A stretch of DNA of 64,000 nucleotides. It comes from Bursaphelenchus xylophilus. Taxonomy: Eukaryota; Nematoda; Chromadorea; Rhabditida; Aphelenchoididae. Below the pieces are notes generated by a model. That model worked only from the letters and a program-made list of their open reading frames with translations. It was not told where the DNA came from and searched no databases. Positions 45,565 through 64,000 of the stretch are shown piece after piece (position 1 is the stretch's first letter; each line of letters begins with the position of its first letter). A program made the position numbers and the translations under genes. Location: contig CAJFCV020000003.1 in NCBI GenBank assembly GCA_904066235.2, forward strand, positions 9,672,001 to 9,736,000. Reading direction: 5' to 3'.

Positions 45565-46200
45565 ATCGACGTTGAAAATTTTTGAAAATTTATTGGTACG
45601 GAAATCATCAAAAAACACAATCGAGGTCTAAAAGTAGAGCATCATAGACGCCATTGACGCCGCTTCAAGATGCGGCGTTTTATGCTAACTACAAAAAATC
45701 CTACTGCTATAGAATGTAGCCGTTCGGCACCATTTGTCATCAGGCTCGTTATTTTATGATATCTCTGCTCTGAAAGAGAGAAGATTTTAGGTCTGCACCA
45801 CGAGCGCTCTCAGACTATGCAGTTTACAGTATCTGATCAAAGGTACTCCTTAAAATTTGTCATCTTGCTCGGCTGAAAATCAGATAACAGGGAATTATAA
45901 TAAAACCAAAGCAAACAACTCGTCACTGTCAAATTTATCAAGCCTCTAAACGCCACGCGGTCCACCTATATAGTTATATAAAACAAAAAATTGTTCTAGT
46001 CTGTTACAGCTAGAATTTGCAGCTTCTATTCGCTCAGATGAATAGAATTGTAGGGAGCAGACCTATCCTTGAACAGTCATTCAAAGAGTATTATACATAC
46101 TACATATAAGTTATCAAATTTCTGGCATAATAATGTGCTTATATAAGGAAAACAGGAAAACCTTTCAAGCTTTTATCATCAAAATGAATCGTATTTATTC
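45565..46200. other. intergenic, nothing recognised
   Basis: 3' flank of the membrane-protein gene and promoter side of pepsin-like paralogue B. Confidence 0.5.
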
Positions 46201-48570
46201 TTGCTACTTTTCTTTGGCCTTTTATTTACCACGAATGGATATATGGTACAATTTGGGCTGGAAGTAATCTTTGCTGATAGCCCTAATAAAAAGTCCCTTC
46301 AAATTGATCTAACGTCCGCTGAAAGTTACGTTCTTGACCATCGATATTTTGGCCAGCTTACTCGGAGAGAACAAGACTTTGATCCCACGAAATCTCCGAC
46401 ATTTACGGAGGTCAACAACAACTTTTCGAAGGCTTATTTCAGACCTTACGATAAACAGGATATTGCCGTTGGAGGAATTGTCGGCAAGGACAAGTTCAAC
46501 TTTATTTTTGAAGATATCGAAGGAGAGTTTGCGGTGATAAATAAGACCGACAATAATAAGGTTGTGCAAGGACTTGATGGGCGTTACTATACAGGTCGAA
46601 TTGGATTTTCAAGAGCCGAAACTAATGTGGCGGATCTGAGAAATGCAATTTTTGCGTCGCATGTCAACCATAGCTTGTGTATGTACGTGTCGCCGCGGCT
46701 AGAGTAAGTTACATTTGAGTCCGTTTAAAAAAACATGGTGGATGCTAAAAAACCACTCATTCGAACCTTTGGAGTGCGGTTTTGGTGACTTGTGCAACAT
46801 GAGAGCAAGTTGACTCGTGGAGGAAGATGACTTGGCTTGTCTTTCAGTCGAATAGCCCCTTCTTGAGGTGTAGTTGGGCATCACAGAGCTCCTTGCTGAC
46901 CGTGGCGTTTTTTTAAAAAGAATTTCCCAATGCACCACGCCGGCGGGCGCACACTTGCGGGCAACCACTTTGCGGGCAATTAGTTTGCGGGAAATTTTTT
47001 TGCGGGCAGCCACTTTGCGGGCAGCCGACATTTGCGGCCAGCACCGGCATTTGCGGGCAGCCTGGGACATTTGCGGGCAGGGTCGACAGTTGCGGGCAGC
47101 CTGGAAGATTTGCGGGCAGCCGACATTTGCGGGCAACCGACACCTGATTGTGAGGTCAACAGGGTGGGCGTGGAAAAATTACTATGATATTTTGGAAATT
47201 TGCCGACATTTGCGGGCAGCCGACATTTGCGGGCAGGCAATACTTGCGGGAAACCGAAATTTGCGGGCAACAGTTCCAAAAGTTGCTATACAGTCTGTGT
47301 GATTGTTTTTTCGTATTGCCCGCAAATGTCGGCTGCCCGCAAGTGTCGGCTGCCCGCAAATGTCGGCAAATTTCCAAAATATCGCAGTAATATTTCCACC
47401 TCCACCCTGTAACCCTCAGGTGCCGGTTGCCCGCAAATGTCGGCTGCCCGCAAGTGTCGGTTGCCCGCAAGTGTCCCAGGCTGCCCGCAAGTGTCTCAGC
47501 TGCCCGCAAATGTTTCAGCTGCCCGCAAATGTGGCCCCCCAAATTTTGCCCGCAAAGTGTTTGCCCGCAAAAAATTTGCCCGCAAACTGGTTGCCCGTAA
47601 AGTGGTTGCCCGCAAGTGTCGCGACGCCACCACGCCTTCCCAGTCCCCCAAATGCAGATCATGGCCTTTTTGGGTGGTGATCTTGCTTTACTGTTCCCTG
47701 GGGTCACCCACTCCAGGAAATAGTCGACATTTTGCTTCATATTGGCGTACAGACACCATTTCTCATCCCCCATGATGACTCGGTACAAAAACCGCTGTTT
47801 GTGTCCACTTGTTGCTCGGCGAAAAGAGCAAGTGTCAAAAACGCAAATTTTTGCCTCCTGGATGGTTGACTTTTGAGCCCAAAAAATAATAAAAAATTAA
47901 ATTTTCAAAAAAGACTAAAAGCATAGTTTTGTAGAGGGGAAAGAGGTCTTTCGAATGTATATACGCACTTTGCCAAACAAACAACTATCGTTGTAAAACA
48001 AAGCAATAAAAAACCTACGAATTCTCGAATTTAATAGGGCCGTCATCATCGCGTGTTTTCAGTCGCAGAGGAGCTATCGTCTCCGTGAGTGTGGGTGACG
48101 AAAGTTATGGGAAGGGAAGCGAATTCATCACCAAATTTGACGCCGAATCCAACGACCAGGGCCATTGGCAAGTCCCTGTGACCTCCATCAAAATCGCACG
48201 TTACGTTTATCAAGCCCACTTTCCCGGAATTTTGAGTACTACAACTGACAAAATCGGCGTTCCGGCGCCAGTTTTTAATGGACTAGTCAGAGCAATGAAT
48301 GCGACATTCGACCGAGAGGTGAATTCCTATGTTCTGCAATGTATCGACGAGTTCCCTGACCCGTTGAGAATCAACGTTAATTTTAAGGAATTGGAAATCC
48401 GTTTTGACTCGTACACAAAGAGGGTTGTTGACAAATGCGTCTTGAATATGATCCCCTTGAAGGAAAGAGTTGTCATTCTTGGCGCTCCCTTCTTCAACGA
48501 GCATGTAATTTGTCTGGATTTTATTAATGAGACGGTGACCTTGTTCTACGTCCCTCCATTCGACTATTAA
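46201..48570 (+). CDS. pepsin-like (A1 fold) protein, predicted inactive, paralogue B, start uncertain
   Basis: Exon 1 ends at 46703 and exon 2 is 48063-48570, in phase (about 336 aa). The frame encodes a signal-peptide-like LLLFFGLLFTTNGYMVQFGL, but the only nearby ATG (46184-46186) is one base out of frame. Either a 1-base indel broke the start, the assembly is wrong, or an unseen 5' exon exists. N-lobe DTGS is DLTS (IDLTSAESYVLD). The C-lobe catalytic Asp is Ser (GILSTTTDKIGVP). Other fold markers (DFDPTKSPTF, GIVGKDKF, VVILGAPFF) are kept. Intron 1 (1.36 kb) contains a mariner relic filled with GCGGGCA arrays. The intact exon 2 argues that decay, if real, is recent. Confidence 0.75.
46735..47880 (-). 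mobile_element. mariner transposase relic in paralogue-B intron
   Basis: On the minus strand, HKQRFLYRVIMGDEKWCLYA (about 47750-47810) and KKAMICIWGTGKAW match the catalytic core GDEKW..Y and KK.M..IWWD of mariner transposases. NATVSKELCDAQLH and VIFLHESTCSHVAQVTKTAL (46760-46910) match the C-terminal LLHDNARPH region. Stops, frameshifts and a ~700 bp array insertion make it non-functional. Confidence 0.85.
46930..47622. repeat. opposed arrays of TTGCGGGCA units
   Basis: About 15 units of the type TTTGCGGGCAGCCGACA run forward from 46930 to 47275. About 14 run in reverse (GCCCGCAAATGTCGGCT) from 47318 to 47622. The unique block GGAAATTTGCCGACA and neighbours are also inverted, so the two halves can pair as a hairpin. 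The spacing (12-30 bp) is irregular. Confidence 0.88.
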
Positions 48571-49087
48571 GTTAAAATGCTTTTGGAGAGCAACAGAACT
48601 TCGTCTTTTGATGGAAGAACAGCCCAATTTAAGCGTAAAATTTATGATGTTTGAACGTCAATTGTAAAGGAATAAATGCAATGCAAAGCAATCTTTCAAT
48701 CATTTCTAGAAAGCCAACAGTCTCCCATATGTCTCGCAACAAAATTCATTTTTTCGGCGATGCGGCATTGCGTTCATTATTTTCCCGACTGACTGTTCAT
48801 TATTTTCCCGACTGACGGCATTGCGTTCATTATTTCCCCGACTGACCGAGTCATCTTGGGAAAAACTTTGGAAAAAACTTTTAGCGCATTTCTCAAGAAC
48901 TTTGCTCTCAAAGATAATAATGCTTTTTCCGAACTTCCTTGCCACCCAGGACTTTCTGTTTGATAAAATTAAGCCCATAGTATCATTGTTTATTTTGATG
49001 ATAAGACGTTAAGCCTACCCTTGAGCTATCACTGCCACAAAAAGCGGTTCTCGAAACGTCAGCAGTACAAGTTGTTCTCATTCAGAC
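48571..49087. other. intergenic between paralogues B and C
   Basis: Contains a short direct repeat of CGTTCATTATTTTCCCGACTG (three tries between 48770 and 48845). Otherwise nothing recognised. Confidence 0.5.
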
Positions 49088-50990
49088 ATGAGGCATGGTC
49101 AGTGTTTATTGTTTCTATCAATTATTAGTTACGCTTCCGGATACGTTGTGCAGTTCGAAGTGCCCGTCAAATTTGCTGACTCAAATTTGACCGTCAGATT
49201 GCTGTCGCTTGATCTGACGACCGTTGAGAGCTTTGTTTTCGACTATCGATCCTTCAATAAGTCAAGACTCAACGCCTTTGACCCTTCCGCATCCAAGAAG
49301 TTCAAAAACAAAGGCGAATTTAAGGGGCTTTATTCCCCACCGTACAACAAAGAGTTCGTCTCAACTTCAGGAATTTTGGGAAAGGATAAAATTGAATATC
49401 ACGGGCATGTTTTCAAAGGAGAATTTGGAGTAGTTGACCGGGACAATAATAATTACATCCATAAAGGAATTGATGGTAAAGAACGAGCAGGAAGGCTTGG
49501 ATTTTCACGTGGCGATGAAACTTGGGCTGACTTGAGAGAGAAGTTCTTGAAGGGGAATGAGAATAAAAGTCTCTGCTTGGTAGTCAGGGAATATCGAAGG
49601 TAAGCTCGTATATCAGTGTTATAAAACAAGTAGAGAGCAATTGAAATTTATTGATTACTGCAAAAAAAATTAACAGGGGGGGGGGGAGTACTCCAAGTGC
49701 GACGCTCAGATTTTCTTTAAATTTTGCGCACACGTCGGGAATGGACTAAATATAAATTCCTGAAAGTTTTAGCTCGCGCTTTGCGGGCGCCGCCGAGATA
49801 TCGAACGCTTTTTTGCCGCCGAGAGAGCACGCTAAATGTGGAGAGCGGTCAGGGGGAAAAACGCTTTTTGGCTATAACTTTGGCGGTTTCGTGCGGAAAA
49901 TTTTGATTTTTTGTAGAAACATTATCCTTTATGGTAAAAATAGGCATGAAACTTTTCGTGCCGAAATTCCGCAAAAAGTGCTAAATTTTGGCCGACTTTC
50001 GATCTAAAAATCTAGGTTGTTTCTGCAAAGCGCGAGCTAGGATTCTCGCATGTATCTTAGAAAAAAATATTCTAAATTTGTGCCAAGTTTTATAAAAATC
50101 TGAGCGTCGCACTTGGAGTACTTCCCCTGTAAATTGGAAAATAATTTTAGGCATTTTATTTTTTGGTGCGGGATTGTAATTTCTGCGCTTTCTGCACAGT
50201 GCAAAGAAAACCATTTTTGCACAGTGCAAAGCCAAAAATAGGCTTGTTTTATTCCTGCACAGTGCAATGAGGTCAAGTTCTTAGACTGTCCAAAAGATCA
50301 GAGCCAAATTTATAAAGCGTTTTTTCATTACATAAAGCCTGCAGTTTTAACGTAAATTTTTTTTCTTTTACCCGTCTAACCCACCCTAACTCAACTCCAA
50401 AAATTTCCAGCGCAGTCGAAGCTACCGTCTCAATTGGCGACCCAATTTACAAACCAGACGAAATTGTCTCTTACTTCAACGCTTCTTTCAACAACAATGG
50501 TCATTGGCGAGTGCCACTGACTTCCATACAAATCGGTGATTATGAAATTGAAGTCGACACACCTGGAATTCTAAGCACATCAACTGATGAGATTGGATTT
50601 CCAAAGCGTATATTCAATTCGGTTATTGCGGAATTAAGAGCGGTTTATTACTCGTCTTTGAAGGCATACATTGTGAGCTGTGCAAATCGGCAACCGCTGA
50701 GAATCGGGGTTAATTCAACCGAAATTACGATCGATCCCTCATCGTACATGAAGAGGGTTGGCCTACAATGCGCGTTGAGATTGAGCCCGGTGGATCAGAG
50801 TATCTTTATTCTCGGTGGCCCGTTTTACAATAGACGTGGAGTCTGTATGGACTTTGAGGATTATACTATTACGTTGTTCAGGCCTGTTCAACGGATTTAT
50901 GACGGATCTCAGCAAGCCAAAGAGATGGTTGATGATGGTAGGAGATACATGTATACCCAACGGTTAAGAATTGATGAAACCTTTGAATAA
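49088..50990 (+). CDS. secreted pepsin-like (A1 fold) protein, predicted inactive, paralogue C
   Basis: Exons 49088-49599 and 50411-50990 join in phase (363 aa). Signal peptide MRHGQCLLFLSIISYASG. N-lobe: LSLDLTTVESFVFDY, so Asp is kept but Thr-Gly is replaced by Leu-Thr. C-lobe: GILSTSTDEIGFP, Ser instead of the catalytic Asp. Pepsin-fold landmarks seen are NGHWRVPLTSI (usual GYW....I), AYIVSCANRQPLRIGVN (VSC strand) and IFILGGPFYNRRGVCMDF (ILGD..... strand). The intron sits at the same place as in A, B and D. It and paralogue D are the most alike by eye. The intron contains a full TIR element and a palindrome repeat. Confidence 0.92.
49672..50133. mobile_element. ~450 bp terminal-inverted-repeat element, full copy 2, in paralogue-C intron
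   Basis: Inverted relative to the copy at 17608. Ends are AGTACTCCAAGTGCGACGCT and its complement, with CCCCTGTAA at the right and a run of eleven G at the left. No ORF of transposase type. Confidence 0.75.
50194..50265 (+). repeat. tetra-palindrome element, three palindromes left
   Basis: GCACAGTGC at 50194, 50220 and 50257 around CCAAAAATAGGC. It lies 60 bp after the TIR element in the same intron. Confidence 0.7.
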
Positions 50991-51039
50991 AAAATAGACA
51001 AACTGAAGATATTTATATAGCATTCTAAAACAGCTCTGT

Positions 51040-51190
51040 TTGAGCAGAGAGATATACAAAAATTTTGTTTTTTCTCTAGCCGCTCTCTGCTTATCGCATG
51101 TGCCCCTCTTTGTAAAGATTGTTGAATGCCCCGGCAGCGCCGCCAGACCGCAGGCTGAAGTTTTCAGGTGTCTACACCTGATCTTGACCC
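51040..51190. repeat. decayed fragment of the ~450 bp TIR element
   Basis: AGCCGCTCTCTGCTTATCGC and AAAGATTGTTGAATGCCCCG resemble the interior at 17880-17940. It sits between the 3' ends of paralogues C and D. Confidence 0.45.
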
Positions 51191-51380
51191 TAATCAACTA
51201 TCATTCTGGGGGTTCGCCCTCCAAAAGCCGATAATCAAGGCTTGTCCTTTATTAAAATTTATTAAAATAGGTTTTAATAAAATGCCATGTCAATAAACAT
51301 AATACGAAAAAACTCGACAAATTTATTATCAAATCAAGAAATATGTTTTTTTTTCAACATAATAAAGTCATCATCAAAAC

Positions 51381-52794
51381 TTACGCAACCTTAACTCTTC
51401 TAATGTTTTGAATTCCTCTTCTTCTTTGACTTTGATTCATATTGCTTAATTTCTTGAGGTTATAATCCTCCGGTTTATACAAAGTTACGGTAAAATCGGC
51501 GTAGTTCAAACAAACTCCGTTATACATAAAGTAAGGGCCTCCAAGAACGATGGCTTTCTGGGCGGTCGGGCTAATTCTCAACACGCATTTCTGGCCAACT
51601 TGCTTTGTATAAGATGCAGGAATAATCTCAAACAGCTTAGAATTCACCCCAATCTTCAATATTTCCTTATTCGAACAGTCCACAACATAGGCGTTTAGCG
51701 CCTTGTCCAACGTCGCTTTCAACGCCCGTACAACTGAGTTGAAGATTGGTGTTGGGAAAACGATTTGATCCGTTGAAGTGCTGAGAATTCCGGGCGTCCC
51801 AACTTGATATTTGTAACCGCCGGCTTCGACAGAAGTCACTGGCACTTGCCAATGGCCATTGTTGTTGTCGGCCGCTTTGAATTGGGTGATGACCTCTTCC
51901 GGTTCGTAATACGGTTTACCAAATTTGACAGCGGTCAGTATTTCGCTGCAATATACTGTAATTAGAAAAACTTCTGATTGTTTTTACAAGGGAAGGTTTT
52001 AATTTTGGACAAACATAATTATGTAAAGGTCGGTGAGACATTATTTTCTAACTTCAGACATGCACAACAACATTTGCAGAAACCGCCAAAGCTTTTTATC
52101 AATAGTCGAAAAAGATATGGTAAAACTCGTGGATGACGTCATCGACAAAAAATTCGAATCTACAGCCTTCTTATATCCAAAAATTTAAGCAATTTGTGCT
52201 GTTCTACATTCCAGTTTTCATATGAGACATTTTCAACGTCTTTGAGTGCGAGTTCTTTTAAATTCCCCACAAAACTTACTCATCAAACCGGAAAATAGCC
52301 AAGCAGAGGTTTTTCTCCTTCTGTGCTGCAAAGATGGCGGATCTCAAATCAACATGCGTCGCCTTGGCACGCGATAGCCCAACTCTTCCGGCTTTTTCGC
52401 TTCCATCAATTGAATTCAACACTCCCTTTCCGTCAGCCCAATTTACAACCGCGAAATCACCAATCAAAACTTTGCCAGTGGTGTTGATGACGTCCGCCCC
52501 TAAAAATCCTTGTACCGTCATGTTCTGACTGTTTGCTGGGGTAAAATAGGATGCTTTGAAGGAGTCGGAGATCTTTTTGAAGGTTTTTGATGCAGATGGA
52601 TCAAATGCGTCGACGTGCGATTTGTTGAAGGCGCGGTAATCGAAAACAAAGCTTTCGGAGGTTGTTAAATCAACGGCCAAGTATTTCGAGCGATCAGAAT
52701 CCGAGAATTTGACTTCCAACTCGAATTGAACAACATCACTGGTAATGGAGCGGAGTGAGAGTAGCCATAAGGCAAAAGAAAATAAAGTAATCAT
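51381..52794 (-). CDS. secreted pepsin-like (A1 fold) protein, predicted inactive, paralogue D
   Basis: Exons 52794-52280 and 51945-51381 join in phase (359 aa). Signal peptide MITLFSFALWLLSLRSITS. N-lobe: LAVDLTTSESFVFDYR. C-lobe: GILSTSTDQIVFP, again Ser for the second catalytic Asp. The end of the protein has AIVLGGPYFMYNGVCLNYAD. It is convergent with paralogue C, and its 5' end is 404 bp from the divergent SIAH-ATG8 gene, so the two may share a promoter region. Confidence 0.92.
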
Positions 52795-53198
52795 ATTGAA
52801 AACTAAACAATATAAGTTTTTAATGTTTTATTCGAAAAATCCCTTTTAAATAGTCAAATATATAAGGATAGCCGCAGATTTTTGAATTCGTACATTAGCT
52901 AAACAATAGAATTAAGTTCTTACAAGGGTTAGTTTGCCTTATCGAACAATGACTTCCTTTTTGGAAGTCTTATGAACCATGTTTCATAAACATTGTGAAA
53001 AAGAACAATGTCCAGCAATAAAAAAACAACTCTGACATCATTCTAAACAAATGGCAATCAGTTTCTCCTCCAATTTTCAATTTCATGCTCTTTCGTATAA
53101 AATGACGCCGCACTGCGCACAATCCTTGGGCGCAGCTTGCAATTTCATCACATGCAAAAAAATAAATAAAAACATTTCCGATTGACATCAAGTACAAG

Positions 53199-54015
53199 AT
53201 GGGGACGTCAGAAATGGAGGAGTCCATTTCTTTGGCCGACTCAGTGAACGTTGACAAGCTTCTGAATCAGTTGGAGTGTCCAGTTTGTTATCAATATTGT
53301 ACTCCGCCCGTTTTTCAATGCAAAAATGGGCATCTGCTGTGTAATTGTTGCTTAGAGAATGTGCGAAATTGTCCATTATGCAGACAACCTCATGGTGAGT
53401 AGAGTTCTAATTGGTTTTTGGGATTTTTTTGATGTTATCCTTGGGATTAAAAGAAAATTCTTTTTTTTTAGGTGTGAATCGAGCCTTAGCCTTGGAAAAG
53501 ATGATCGATATGTTCCAGTTTCCTTGCGAGTACAGATCCAGAGGTTGTGGAGCCGTAATGAAGTTGAATGAAAAAATTATTCACGATGAAACTTGTCCGT
53601 ATATTAATGTAGAAGATCTTGGAGAAACTTCGAAGAAACTGATAGAAGAAGATGAAAATGGTAAGATTTTTTCTCTAAATATATTCTCTGATGTTTAGAC
53701 AATGTTCCGCTGAAGTTGCTCTTCCGTCGACAGCCTGGTAAGGTGCCAGTGGTCTTTTTGCCTTATTTCGCCGAGAAGAATATGGCTCAAATCAAACCAA
53801 ACAAGTTTCTAATCGATGAACGACATCCAGTCTCATACTTGTATGCCATTGTGAGATCACGGCTGAAGTTGAAAAAGAACGAAGCCATCTTCTTGATGGT
53901 TGGAGGCACGAATTTGGTCTTACAATCAATTCCAATCAGCTCCTTGTATACTACAATGAAGGCGGCGAATGGTGTTTTATACGTGACCTACTGCTCTCAG
54001 CCGACTTTTGGATGA
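53199..54015 (+). CDS. SIAH-type RING and zinc finger fused to an ATG8-like domain
   Basis: Three exons, 53199-53394, 53472-53660 and 53699-54015, join in phase with introns of 77 and 38 bp (233 aa). Residues 27-61 are a SINA/SIAH RING: C27, C30, C41, H45, C48, C51, C58, C61, with the spacing of SIAH1. Residues 84-107 match the first SIAH zinc finger (C84, C91, H103, C107) after RALALEKMIDMFQFPC. The second zinc finger and the TRAF-like substrate-binding sandwich are absent. Instead residues about 131-233 are ATG8/LC3-like: RRQPGKVPVVFL, KFLIDERHPVSYLYAIVRSR, NEAIFLMVGG, ANGVLYVTYCSQPTFG. The protein ends exactly at the glycine that ATG4 exposes in ATG8s. The ATG8 N-terminal helices are missing. 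Inference: an E3 ligase carrying its own autophagy-type ubiquitin-like fold, possibly lipidated or used to bind LIR motifs. Confidence 0.9.
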
Positions 54016-62100: not shown

Positions 62101-64000
62101 TTTTCATTTTTGAAATTTTTTGAATTTTTGCATAATTTATTTTGGGTTAGAACGTACAAGGTTGTTTTGAGACTTTTGAAGGGGTTTATTTATATATCTT
62201 TGTCCGATTTATTTGACTTTTTGTTAATATGAGATTTTTTGAAAATCTGGGAATTTGGTAGTTTTTTTTGAATGTTTTCGACTGTTTTATAAGTAGTATA
62301 TCCTCGAACTTGCAGCTCATCAATGCTCTCTGTGATTTCCCTCCTCCTTGAGACTTCAGTCCGCGCTCAGCAGCAGCTCTTTTACTCCCAAGGCTTCGTT
62401 ATCATCGCTCATGTCCTCCAACACGCCGCCTCCCCGGAACACCTGAGTGTGATGGTCCTGGACTCCTTTATCAACATCACCAAACTCCTCATCAACTCCT
62501 CGACCGGGATTCCCCTTCTGAAACAACTTTTCGAACATGTTTTCTTCGCTCCGCCCCTCTGGATCCGAGCCTCGGCCCTGATCCAAGTCCGACTTTATGA
62601 GTACATGGCGGTGGATTTGTTCACCAATCCCGTGAATTTGACGTATGTGAGAAGGACCCCGATTGTGGTGCAGCTGATGAATGCCGTCAAGAACTATTAT
62701 TGGATGGTTCCGACTGGGAAATCGGAGAAATTGAAAGAGCTCAGATTTGATGAACAAGGTGAAGATAAATTGGATCGAAGCTCGATTATTCGGATTAGAT
62801 CGGCGATTTTGCAGGTAAGTGGAGGTAGTAGAAGGAGTGAAGAATGTCAGTGTGAATTTTTGATTAATTTTACAATGTTTTAGCTGGTCAATCGGCTCAT
62901 TTTCCAAACCGTCCCATCCAATTTCCAAGATGAAAAGGAAGCCAAACGAGATGAGGAATTGCAATGTCTCTTCAATTTTGTTGCCACGGAATCCGAGGAT
63001 GAGAATATTTATGACGTACTGACATTTATTATGAGGCTGATGAACGATCAGCCGGCTGTGATGATCCCTGCCTATGATAAGAAAAAGGGAAATTGCGTGA
63101 TTTTCAAATTGCTGGGATCGGCGAATGAAACTGTCCGGCTCACAAGTTTGAAGATTTTTGGGTCCTTTTTGTGTCGAAGCACGGCAAAGTGAGTTTTTTT
63201 TAAAATTTTGGGAGCATTGTTAGAGATTTTACACTTCTATTTTGATACGTGTTATGTCCAAAAATATCGTTGGCAAGTCTAGTGTAATATAACTTTTCCA
63301 ATTTTTTGGTCAAAAATTGTTTGAAATGTAGAATAAATAATTTTTATGACATTCCAGGCGAAAATCCGAGGCCGTCAATCAAATGAATCTCCTCCATTTA
63401 CTCACCACCCGCCTCATGAACAACTCCAAAAGTTTGAGTATGAAGACCTACAATGTCCTCTTCGAGATCCTTGTGGAATGCGTTACGTGCGACCCGAATT
63501 TCGCTAAACGTGAGGAATATCAGTACGAGAAATTGAGGTTCGAAAACTCGGCGTTGTTAAAAGTCATTGCCAATTTGTTGGAGGAAAGCGAACAAACCCC
63601 GGAATTGATGGAAGTGAAGCGAGTTTTCGTCATCGATCTGATCAAAATCTGCAAAGATAGCCGAGAAAATAGAAGAATTGTCCTGCAGATGTCGGTCTGG
63701 CAGGAGTGGCTCATCTCTTTGGCCTATGTTTATCCCAAAAATGACTTGGAAGCAACAATTTCGGAGTTGGTCTATGAATTGTTTGCCATCCTCTTATATC
63801 ATGCCATCAGATTGGAATATGGAGGATGGAGAGTGTGGGTGGATACTCTGGCAATAGCTCATTCAAAGGTAATTTTGTTTTAAAATACGGGGCATCCGGT
63901 TGTGTCTATTTTATCGACCTTGTTTTAGGTATCACTGGAGAAAAACTCTCTGAAAAAGCTCCCCAAATCGAACGGCACGAACAGCGAAGCTGAGGAGGCT
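59097..64000 (+). CDS. sel-2: neurobeachin/LRBA homologue, N-terminal half (runs off the window)
   Basis: Thirteen exons join in phase: 59097-59465, 59502-59672, 59769-59873, 59988-60215, 60329-60424, 60536-60657, 60740-60967, 61351-61702, 61862-61995, 62316-62814, 62884-63188, 63358-63868, 63929-64000 (1064 aa so far). After an acidic disordered start, the neurobeachin armadillo region is clear: [38 protein letters not shown] and [20 protein letters not shown]. The concanavalin-like laminin-G fold follows ([34 protein letters not shown]). Then come [40 protein letters not shown] and [18 protein letters not shown]. The DUF1088, PH-like, BEACH and WD40 parts must lie beyond 64000. C. elegans SEL-2 works in endosomal traffic of LIN-12/Notch in polarised epithelia. 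Start chosen as the first ATG of the open exon after an ATTTTAG acceptor. Confidence 0.96.

What the first reader, a model, noticed from the sequence alone, without database searches (positions are those of the whole stretch)
53199..54015. SIAH-type E3 ligase module fused to an ATG8-like domain with a pre-exposed C-terminal glycine
Seen: three exons with phase-matched junctions encode a complete SINA RING (8 ligands), a complete first SIAH zinc finger (CxC spacing 6, 11, 3), then a ~100-residue ATG8/LC3-like fold that replaces the SIAH substrate-binding domain. The last residue is Gly after Phe, the form ATG8s take only after ATG4 cleavage. Known: SIAH proteins recruit substrates through the domain that is missing here; ATG8s bind LIR motifs and are conjugated to phosphatidylethanolamine. 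Inference: the ATG8 domain may now choose LIR-containing substrates for ubiquitination, or bring the ligase to autophagosomes. I know of no described protein with this architecture.
Basis: partly seen in the sequence, partly recalled or inferred. Interest (0 to 1): 0.92.

Follow-up and report, generated by a model that had tools for sequence, protein, structure and literature searches.

The report
Ubiquitin ligase fused to autophagy tag
A gene in the pine wood nematode, with a matching gene model in a related species, is predicted to encode one protein that joins a SIAH-type ubiquitin-ligase head to an LC3-like autophagy tag ending in glycine, so the ligase would likely be carried onto autophagy membranes by its own tag.

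Summary
Exons 53199-53394, 53472-53660 and 53699-54015 join in phase to 233 residues: SINA RING (8 of 8 ligands), first SIAH zinc finger, then an ATG8/LC3-like domain ending SQPTFG. The protein matches Bursaphelenchus xylophilus; B. okinawaensis has a full-length counterpart (69% identity), which argues against an assembly chimera. No third fused protein was found by word-limited searches. Intron 1 splits the same codon, in the same phase, as in the genome's normal SIAH gene; intron 2 has the phase of the LGG-2 intron. This points to joining of SIAH and LGG-2-type exons. The tail is fully kept and the LIR pockets are kept in character; the second zinc finger and the substrate-binding domain are gone. 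Best mechanism (inferred, untested): a ubiquitin ligase placed on autophagy membranes by its own ATG8-type tail, with LIR binding possibly helping. Transcript, ligase activity, lipidation and LIR binding were not tested. An unusual new variant of a known kind.

The parts
53199..53394 (+). Exon 1: N-terminus and SINA RING (residues 1-65 and the first base of codon 66)
   Evidence: the B. okinawaensis model starts at the equivalent residue (by inspection)
53277..53381 (+). SINA RING finger, residues 27-61, 8 of 8 zinc ligands; R62 follows the last Cys
53395..53471 (+). Intron 1, phase 1, same aligned codon and phase as intron 1 of the canonical SIAH gene of this genome
53472..53660 (+). Exon 2: SIAH zinc finger 1 and linker
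53525..53596 (+). SIAH zinc finger 1, residues 84-107, C-x6-C-x11-H-x3-C
53597..53660 (+). Linker, from residue 108, poorly conserved between the two species
53661..53698 (+). Intron 2, 38 nt, phase 1 like the coding intron of LGG-2 in this genome; retention closes the frame at 53698
53699..54015 (+). Exon 3: ATG8/LC3-like domain and stop
53722..54012 (+). ATG8 domain, residues 137-233
53995..54012 (+). C-terminal tail SQPTFG with encoded terminal Gly, residues 228-233

Best explanation
This gene is predicted to encode a single spliced protein in which a SIAH-type RING and zinc-finger head is joined to an LC3/LGG-2-like ATG8 domain that ends in glycine, and the protein likely works as a ubiquitin ligase anchored to autophagy membranes by its own ATG8-type tail. 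Shown by sequence: the phase-matched exons, the full set of RING and ZnF1 ligands, the ATG8 domain with its encoded terminal Gly, the loss of the second zinc finger and the TRAF-like substrate domain, and the same architecture in B. okinawaensis. Inferred: the RING recruits an E2. The terminal Gly, already exposed in the translated protein, is taken up by ATG7 and ATG3 and conjugated to phosphatidylethanolamine, as for LGG-2. The anchored ligase then ubiquitinates LIR-bearing or nearby proteins on the growing phagophore, coupling ubiquitin marking to selective autophagy. Origin (inferred): exon joining between a duplicate of SIAH and a duplicate of an LGG-2-type gene, followed by fast divergence before the two Bursaphelenchus species split.
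For: Spliced frame and domains. Full-length B. okinawaensis counterpart: 235 aa, 69% identity, both Sina domains and ATG8; RING 28 of 35, ZnF1 15 of 24 and ATG8 82 of 103 residues identical, while the linker is poorly conserved. SIAH1 is the best solved match for the head (E 1.1e-22). For the tail domain LC3B leads (6e-19), then LC3A (8e-16) and LGG-2 (1e-15), ahead of GABARAPL2 (4e-8). The alignment to LC3B is ungapped over 100 residues to the terminal Gly. Profile comparison with LGG-2, LC3B and LGG-1 gives probability 99.3 over 101 columns. The weak domain model (pLDDT 54.8) finds ATG8-family structures in 49 of the 50 rows shown (of 404 with E <= 10; the other row has no informative title), TM about 0.5, none at E <= 0.001; Foldseek also uses sequence. 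Tail SQPTFG: 6 of 6 residues equal LC3B or LGG-2, against 31 of 79 background positions (Fisher p 0.005, classes chosen by me). ATG4 (two loci), ATG7 (one) and ATG3/ATG10-type (two) matches are in the genome. Intron 1 is shared with SIAH in position and phase.
Against: No transcript, protein, ligase, lipidation or LIR-binding data were seen. LC3B F108 (pocket 1) is V/I here, P55 (pocket 2) is D and R69 is S. No helix alpha-1 of ATG8s is recognisable. Identity to LGG-2 is only 32-35%, so activation by ATG7/ATG3 cannot be assumed. LIR-pocket identity (7 of 12) is not significantly above background (p 0.17). The trees put the fused pair on a long branch without resolving its closest ATG8 relative. 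From PMC7615515: unlipidated LGG-2 predominates in C. elegans embryo extracts, and lipidated LGG-2 is not detected in the atg-4.1; atg-4.2 double mutant, so an exposed Gly alone may not make lipidation easy or free of ATG4. I lowered this confidence from 0.45 to 0.43, and the novel case from 0.38 to 0.35, for that passage.
Confidence: 0.43

Rival explanations
1. Soluble LIR-directed ligase: the ATG8 domain replaces the SIAH substrate-binding domain as a reader of LIR motifs, chooses autophagy receptors or adaptors for ubiquitination, and is not conjugated.
For: Pocket positions are 11 of 12 identical or hydrophobic-for-hydrophobic; the domain takes the place of the SIAH substrate domain.
Against: The tail with terminal Gly is fully kept although the domain has diverged to 32-40% identity from LC3/LGG-2, which a mere reader would not need. 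F108 and P55 changed; pocket identity is not above background (p 0.17).
Confidence: 0.3
2. Regulator or decoy: the protein competes with LGG-2 or SIAH for partners, with little ligase or conjugation activity of its own.
For: Both halves are strongly diverged from their relatives (stem of the fused pair 1.45 to 2.39 changes per column for ATG8 by model, 1.84 for the SINA head); pocket residues are altered.
Against: All 12 zinc ligands and R62 are kept in both species, and the last seven residues are identical in both.
Confidence: 0.17
3. Two separate genes or a gene-model artefact: exon 3 belongs to another mRNA, and no fused protein exists.
For: Intron 2 is very short (38 nt); no RNA reads were available to me; an unseen upstream coding exon spliced to exon 3 is not excluded.
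Against: The exon-3 frame has no ATG before the M of EKNMAQ inside the domain. Both species' models make the same join. The paper on both genomes states that Augustus was run with RNA-seq intron and exonpart hints (PMC9095866, passages); that P0001 and P0002 come from those sets is my inference from organism names and, for P0001, contig length. Phases match.
Confidence: 0.04
4. ATG12-like role: the domain is conjugated to a protein, not a lipid, as ATG12 is to ATG5.
For: Weak APG12 match above cut-off in both species; an encoded terminal Gly is also the ATG12 state (this genome's ATG12-like ORF ends NAWG).
Against: ATG8 scores far better (64.4 vs 23.8 bits); identity to ATG12 is 20%; the tail is LGG-2-like.
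Confidence: 0.04

Closest known systems
SIAH/SINA E3 ubiquitin ligases (human SIAH1; canonical SIAH of this genome at C4:6341137-6342067)
   Same: RING with all 8 ligands, first SIAH zinc finger, same first intron position and phase as this genome's SIAH
   Different: No second zinc finger, no TRAF-like substrate-binding domain; head 38 of 94 residues identical to this genome's SIAH
LGG-2 / LC3 (ATG8 family)
   Same: Ungapped LC3-type domain, SQPxFG tail, encoded terminal Gly as in LGG-2
   Different: Fused behind a RING head; no recognisable helix alpha-1; 32-40% identity
E3 ligases carrying a ubiquitin-like domain, such as parkin (recalled)
   Same: Ubiquitin-like domain and RING-type ligase in one chain
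   Different: Different ligase class and Ubl family; parkin's Ubl is N-terminal and not a conjugation tail (recalled)
SIAH1 in PINK1/synphilin-1 mitophagy
   Same: SIAH ligase acting upstream of LC3 recruitment (PMC5849152, passages)
   Different: There SIAH1 and LC3 are separate proteins

Membership tests
SIAH/SINA E3 ligase | SINA-type RING | tested here: met
   PF21362 1.6e-11 above cut-off; 8 of 8 ligands
SIAH/SINA E3 ligase | Two SIAH zinc fingers | tested here: not met
   Only ZnF1; profile positions 2-36 of 77, below cut-off
SIAH/SINA E3 ligase | TRAF-like substrate-binding domain | tested here: not met
   PF03145 not among the families listed for the protein up to E 1; its 2 matches in the genome both lie at the canonical SIAH gene
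SIAH/SINA E3 ligase | Ubiquitin ligase activity | not testable with these tools
   needs an assay
ATG8 (LC3/LGG-2 type) | ATG8 domain over its length | tested here: met
   PF02991 positions 10-104 of 104, 1.2e-17; LC3B alignment of 100 residues
ATG8 (LC3/LGG-2 type) | N-terminal helices alpha-1 and alpha-2 | tested here: inconclusive
   The domain-only alignments shown start at LC3B residue 20 to 22 by chain numbering. With the whole protein, alignments to two LC3B chains (5xac, 3x0w) reach back through the linker, but the linker is poorly conserved, so alpha-1 is not recognisable rather than shown absent
ATG8 (LC3/LGG-2 type) | C-terminal aromatic-Gly for conjugation | tested here: met
   SQPTFG at the end of both species' proteins
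ATG8 (LC3/LGG-2 type) | LIR-docking pockets | tested here: inconclusive
   7 of 12 recalled positions identical (p 0.17), 11 of 12 with hydrophobic swaps; F108 and P55 changed
ATG8 (LC3/LGG-2 type) | Ubiquitin-like fold | tested here: inconclusive
   Homology is clear, but the model is weak (pLDDT 54.8); Foldseek top hits LC3/LGG-2, best E 3.7e-3
ATG8 (LC3/LGG-2 type) | Lipidation by ATG7/ATG3 | not testable with these tools
   matches to the enzymes' families are in the genome
ATG12 | Best match to APG12, ends Trp-Gly (recalled) | tested here: not met
   23.8 bits vs 64.4 for ATG8; ends Phe-Gly

The most novel reading that the evidence does not exclude
A self-anchoring ubiquitin ligase: an E3 that is itself an ATG8 modifier, conjugated through its own genome-encoded terminal glycine to autophagosomal phosphatidylethanolamine without a first ATG4 cut, so that ubiquitin writing happens on the phagophore surface.
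Probability: 0.35. Interest if true: 0.88.

Novelty: new variant of a known kind. Interest (0 to 1): 0.72.

Why it matters
Ubiquitin ligation and ATG8 conjugation are usually linked by separate proteins with LIR motifs. A natural single-chain fusion, held in two species, would show that direct coupling is useful, would give a ready tool for placing a ligase on autophagy membranes, and would make testable whether ubiquitin marking on the phagophore itself drives selective autophagy.

Tried and rejected
Terminal Gly as a unique feature: rejected, LGG-2 has it. Exon-3 gene with its own start: rejected as unlikely, first ATG inside the domain. Assembly chimera: rejected, B. okinawaensis has it. 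ATG12 identity: rejected. Full-length structure model with two sequences: uninformative (pLDDT 32.5). ATG8-domain search for unfused relatives: 10 candidates, none at E <= 0.001. Viral-contig search for ATG8 relatives to deepen the alignment: 91 pattern matches, none a relative. Trees: the place of the fused domain is unresolved. Spliced-leader-like acceptor pattern: 0 matches in the window (my own pattern, not diagnostic). A LIR-like core YxNV just behind ZnF1, kept in both species, was noticed, but such short cores are common, so I give it no weight.

Full report
Where it is. The window is G000:C3:9672001-9736000 of a 78.25 Mb, 8-contig genome. The encoded protein is 100% identical over 98% of its length to a gene product named Bursaphelenchus xylophilus, P0001, whose longest-contig length (12,730,644) equals that of C3; so P0001 is probably the model made on this same assembly and not independent support.

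The observation. The three exons join in frame to 233 residues. The head carries a SINA RING (8 of 8 ligands) and ZnF1 (4 of 4), and all 15 Cys/His residues of the first 112 positions are in register in B. okinawaensis. The second zinc finger and the TRAF-like domain are missing. The last domain matches ATG8 (positions 10-104 of 104, E 1.2e-17; APG12 weakly) and aligns without gaps to 100 residues of LC3B, ending at its Gly. Profile comparison to a set of LGG-2, LC3B and LGG-1 gives probability 99.3. The domain-only model is weak (pLDDT 54.8, 3 rows of which two are the same protein). Its elements run strand-strand-helix-strand-strand-helix-strand, with no strand called where LC3 has its second one (recalled). 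Its best PDB matches are LC3 and LGG-2, none at E <= 0.001. The full-length model is uninformative (pLDDT 32.5).

Is it one real gene? B. okinawaensis holds a 235-residue counterpart at 69% identity with the same domains. RING 28 of 35, ZnF1 15 of 24 and ATG8 82 of 103 residues are identical, while the linker is poorly conserved, as for two constrained domains on a free tether. Exon 3 alone offers no ATG before one inside its domain. The published gene sets for both species used Augustus with RNA-seq hints (PMC9095866, passages only); that P0001 and P0002 belong to those sets is inferred. I saw no reads.

How common? Of 146 candidates, 10 passed E 0.001 and 2 carried both domains. With the two-species profile, 14 of 2981 passed and again only those 2 were fused. 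The ATG8 domain alone gave 10 candidates and no match (lengths allowed there exclude the fused proteins). The searches need shared five-residue words and returned 12 SINA-type proteins without ATG8, few of the many SIAH proteins known (recalled), so a diverged third member could be missed; the narrow spread is a lower bound.

Origin. This genome shows one canonical SIAH gene (counts there are lower bounds), LGG-1 (tail VYGAAEE; 120 aa as I joined it, the length published for BxATG8 in PMC4813143, passages), LGG-2 (123 aa, tail SQPAFG), a third ATG8-like gene on C5 (tail EDTMG) and ATG12 (tail NAWG). Intron 1 of the fused gene splits the same aligned codon, in the same phase, as intron 1 of SIAH (CRQPH|G against CRGPV|P). 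The LGG-2 intron is also phase 1 and lies upstream of the shared Q-P-x-K-V-P stretch, about two codons away from the place of fused intron 2 (counted by eye). SIAH intron 2 also reads as phase 1, so phase alone is weak evidence. The tail SQPTFG shares SQP with nematode LGG-2, not SQE of human LC3A/B. Together this favours joining of SIAH and LGG-2-type exons; sequence trees do not resolve it, because both halves sit on long branches, and one of the ATG8 trees weakly put the pair next to LC3B.

How it most likely works. The glycine is not special in itself: a review says that C. elegans LGG-2 exposes it directly (PMC7615515, passages; another review, PMC12005284, speaks of LGG-1 or LGG-2 being cleaved by ATG-4.1 or ATG-4.2, passages). 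But its retention after the domain fell to 32-40% identity with LC3/LGG-2, together with the whole tail (6 of 6 against 31 of 79 elsewhere, p 0.005 with classes that I chose), suggests that conjugation still matters. The genome has matches to ATG7, ATG3/ATG10-type and two ATG4 loci (several matches run through stops, as expected when introns are read through). Against this, unlipidated LGG-2 predominates in C. elegans embryos and lipidated LGG-2 is lost in atg-4.1; atg-4.2 double mutants (PMC7615515), so ATG4 may still be needed; I lowered two odds slightly for it (0.45 to 0.43, 0.38 to 0.35). LIR pockets are kept in character (11 of 12) but not significantly in identity (7 of 12, p 0.17), with F108 and P55 (LC3B numbers, recalled) changed. 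I therefore put a membrane-anchored ligase first and a soluble LIR-directed ligase second. All functional steps are inferred.

Compared with what is known. It fails membership of the SIAH family proper (no substrate domain, one zinc finger), and it is an ATG8-domain protein without a recognisable alpha-1. It works, if the inference holds, like a ligase with an autophagy address. SIAH1 is already tied to LC3 recruitment in mitophagy as a separate protein (PMC5849152, passages). Five literature searches showed no RING-ATG8 fusion in the rows listed: 9 of 9 papers, 20 of 2,498, 20 of 117, 20 of 489 and 16 of 16. Most rows were seen as listings only, passages of four of those papers (PMC7615515, PMC12005284, PMC4813143, PMC5849152) were read, and the library holds open-access papers only.

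Noticed in passing
46147-52827: A tandem cluster of aspartyl-protease-like ORFs on both strands. Three C-terminal halves match Pfam Asp and three N-terminal halves have no match; the latter read DLTT or DLTS where catalytic DTG is expected (motif recalled), so they may be pseudo-proteases.
   Followed up: partly
46955-47619: Degenerate tandem repeats of 15-19 bp around TGCCCGCAAATGTCGGC, in both orientations, inside the protease cluster.
   Followed up: no
62293-63880: Exons of a neurobeachin-type gene (PF15787 at 1.4e-36 and 1.4e-50).
   Followed up: no
L004 (G000:C5:6630087-6630378, minus strand): A third ATG8-like gene with a long N-terminal extension (177 aa in the join used) that also ends in an encoded Gly (EDTMG); the published BxATG8 is 120 aa and appears to be LGG-1.
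   Followed up: partly
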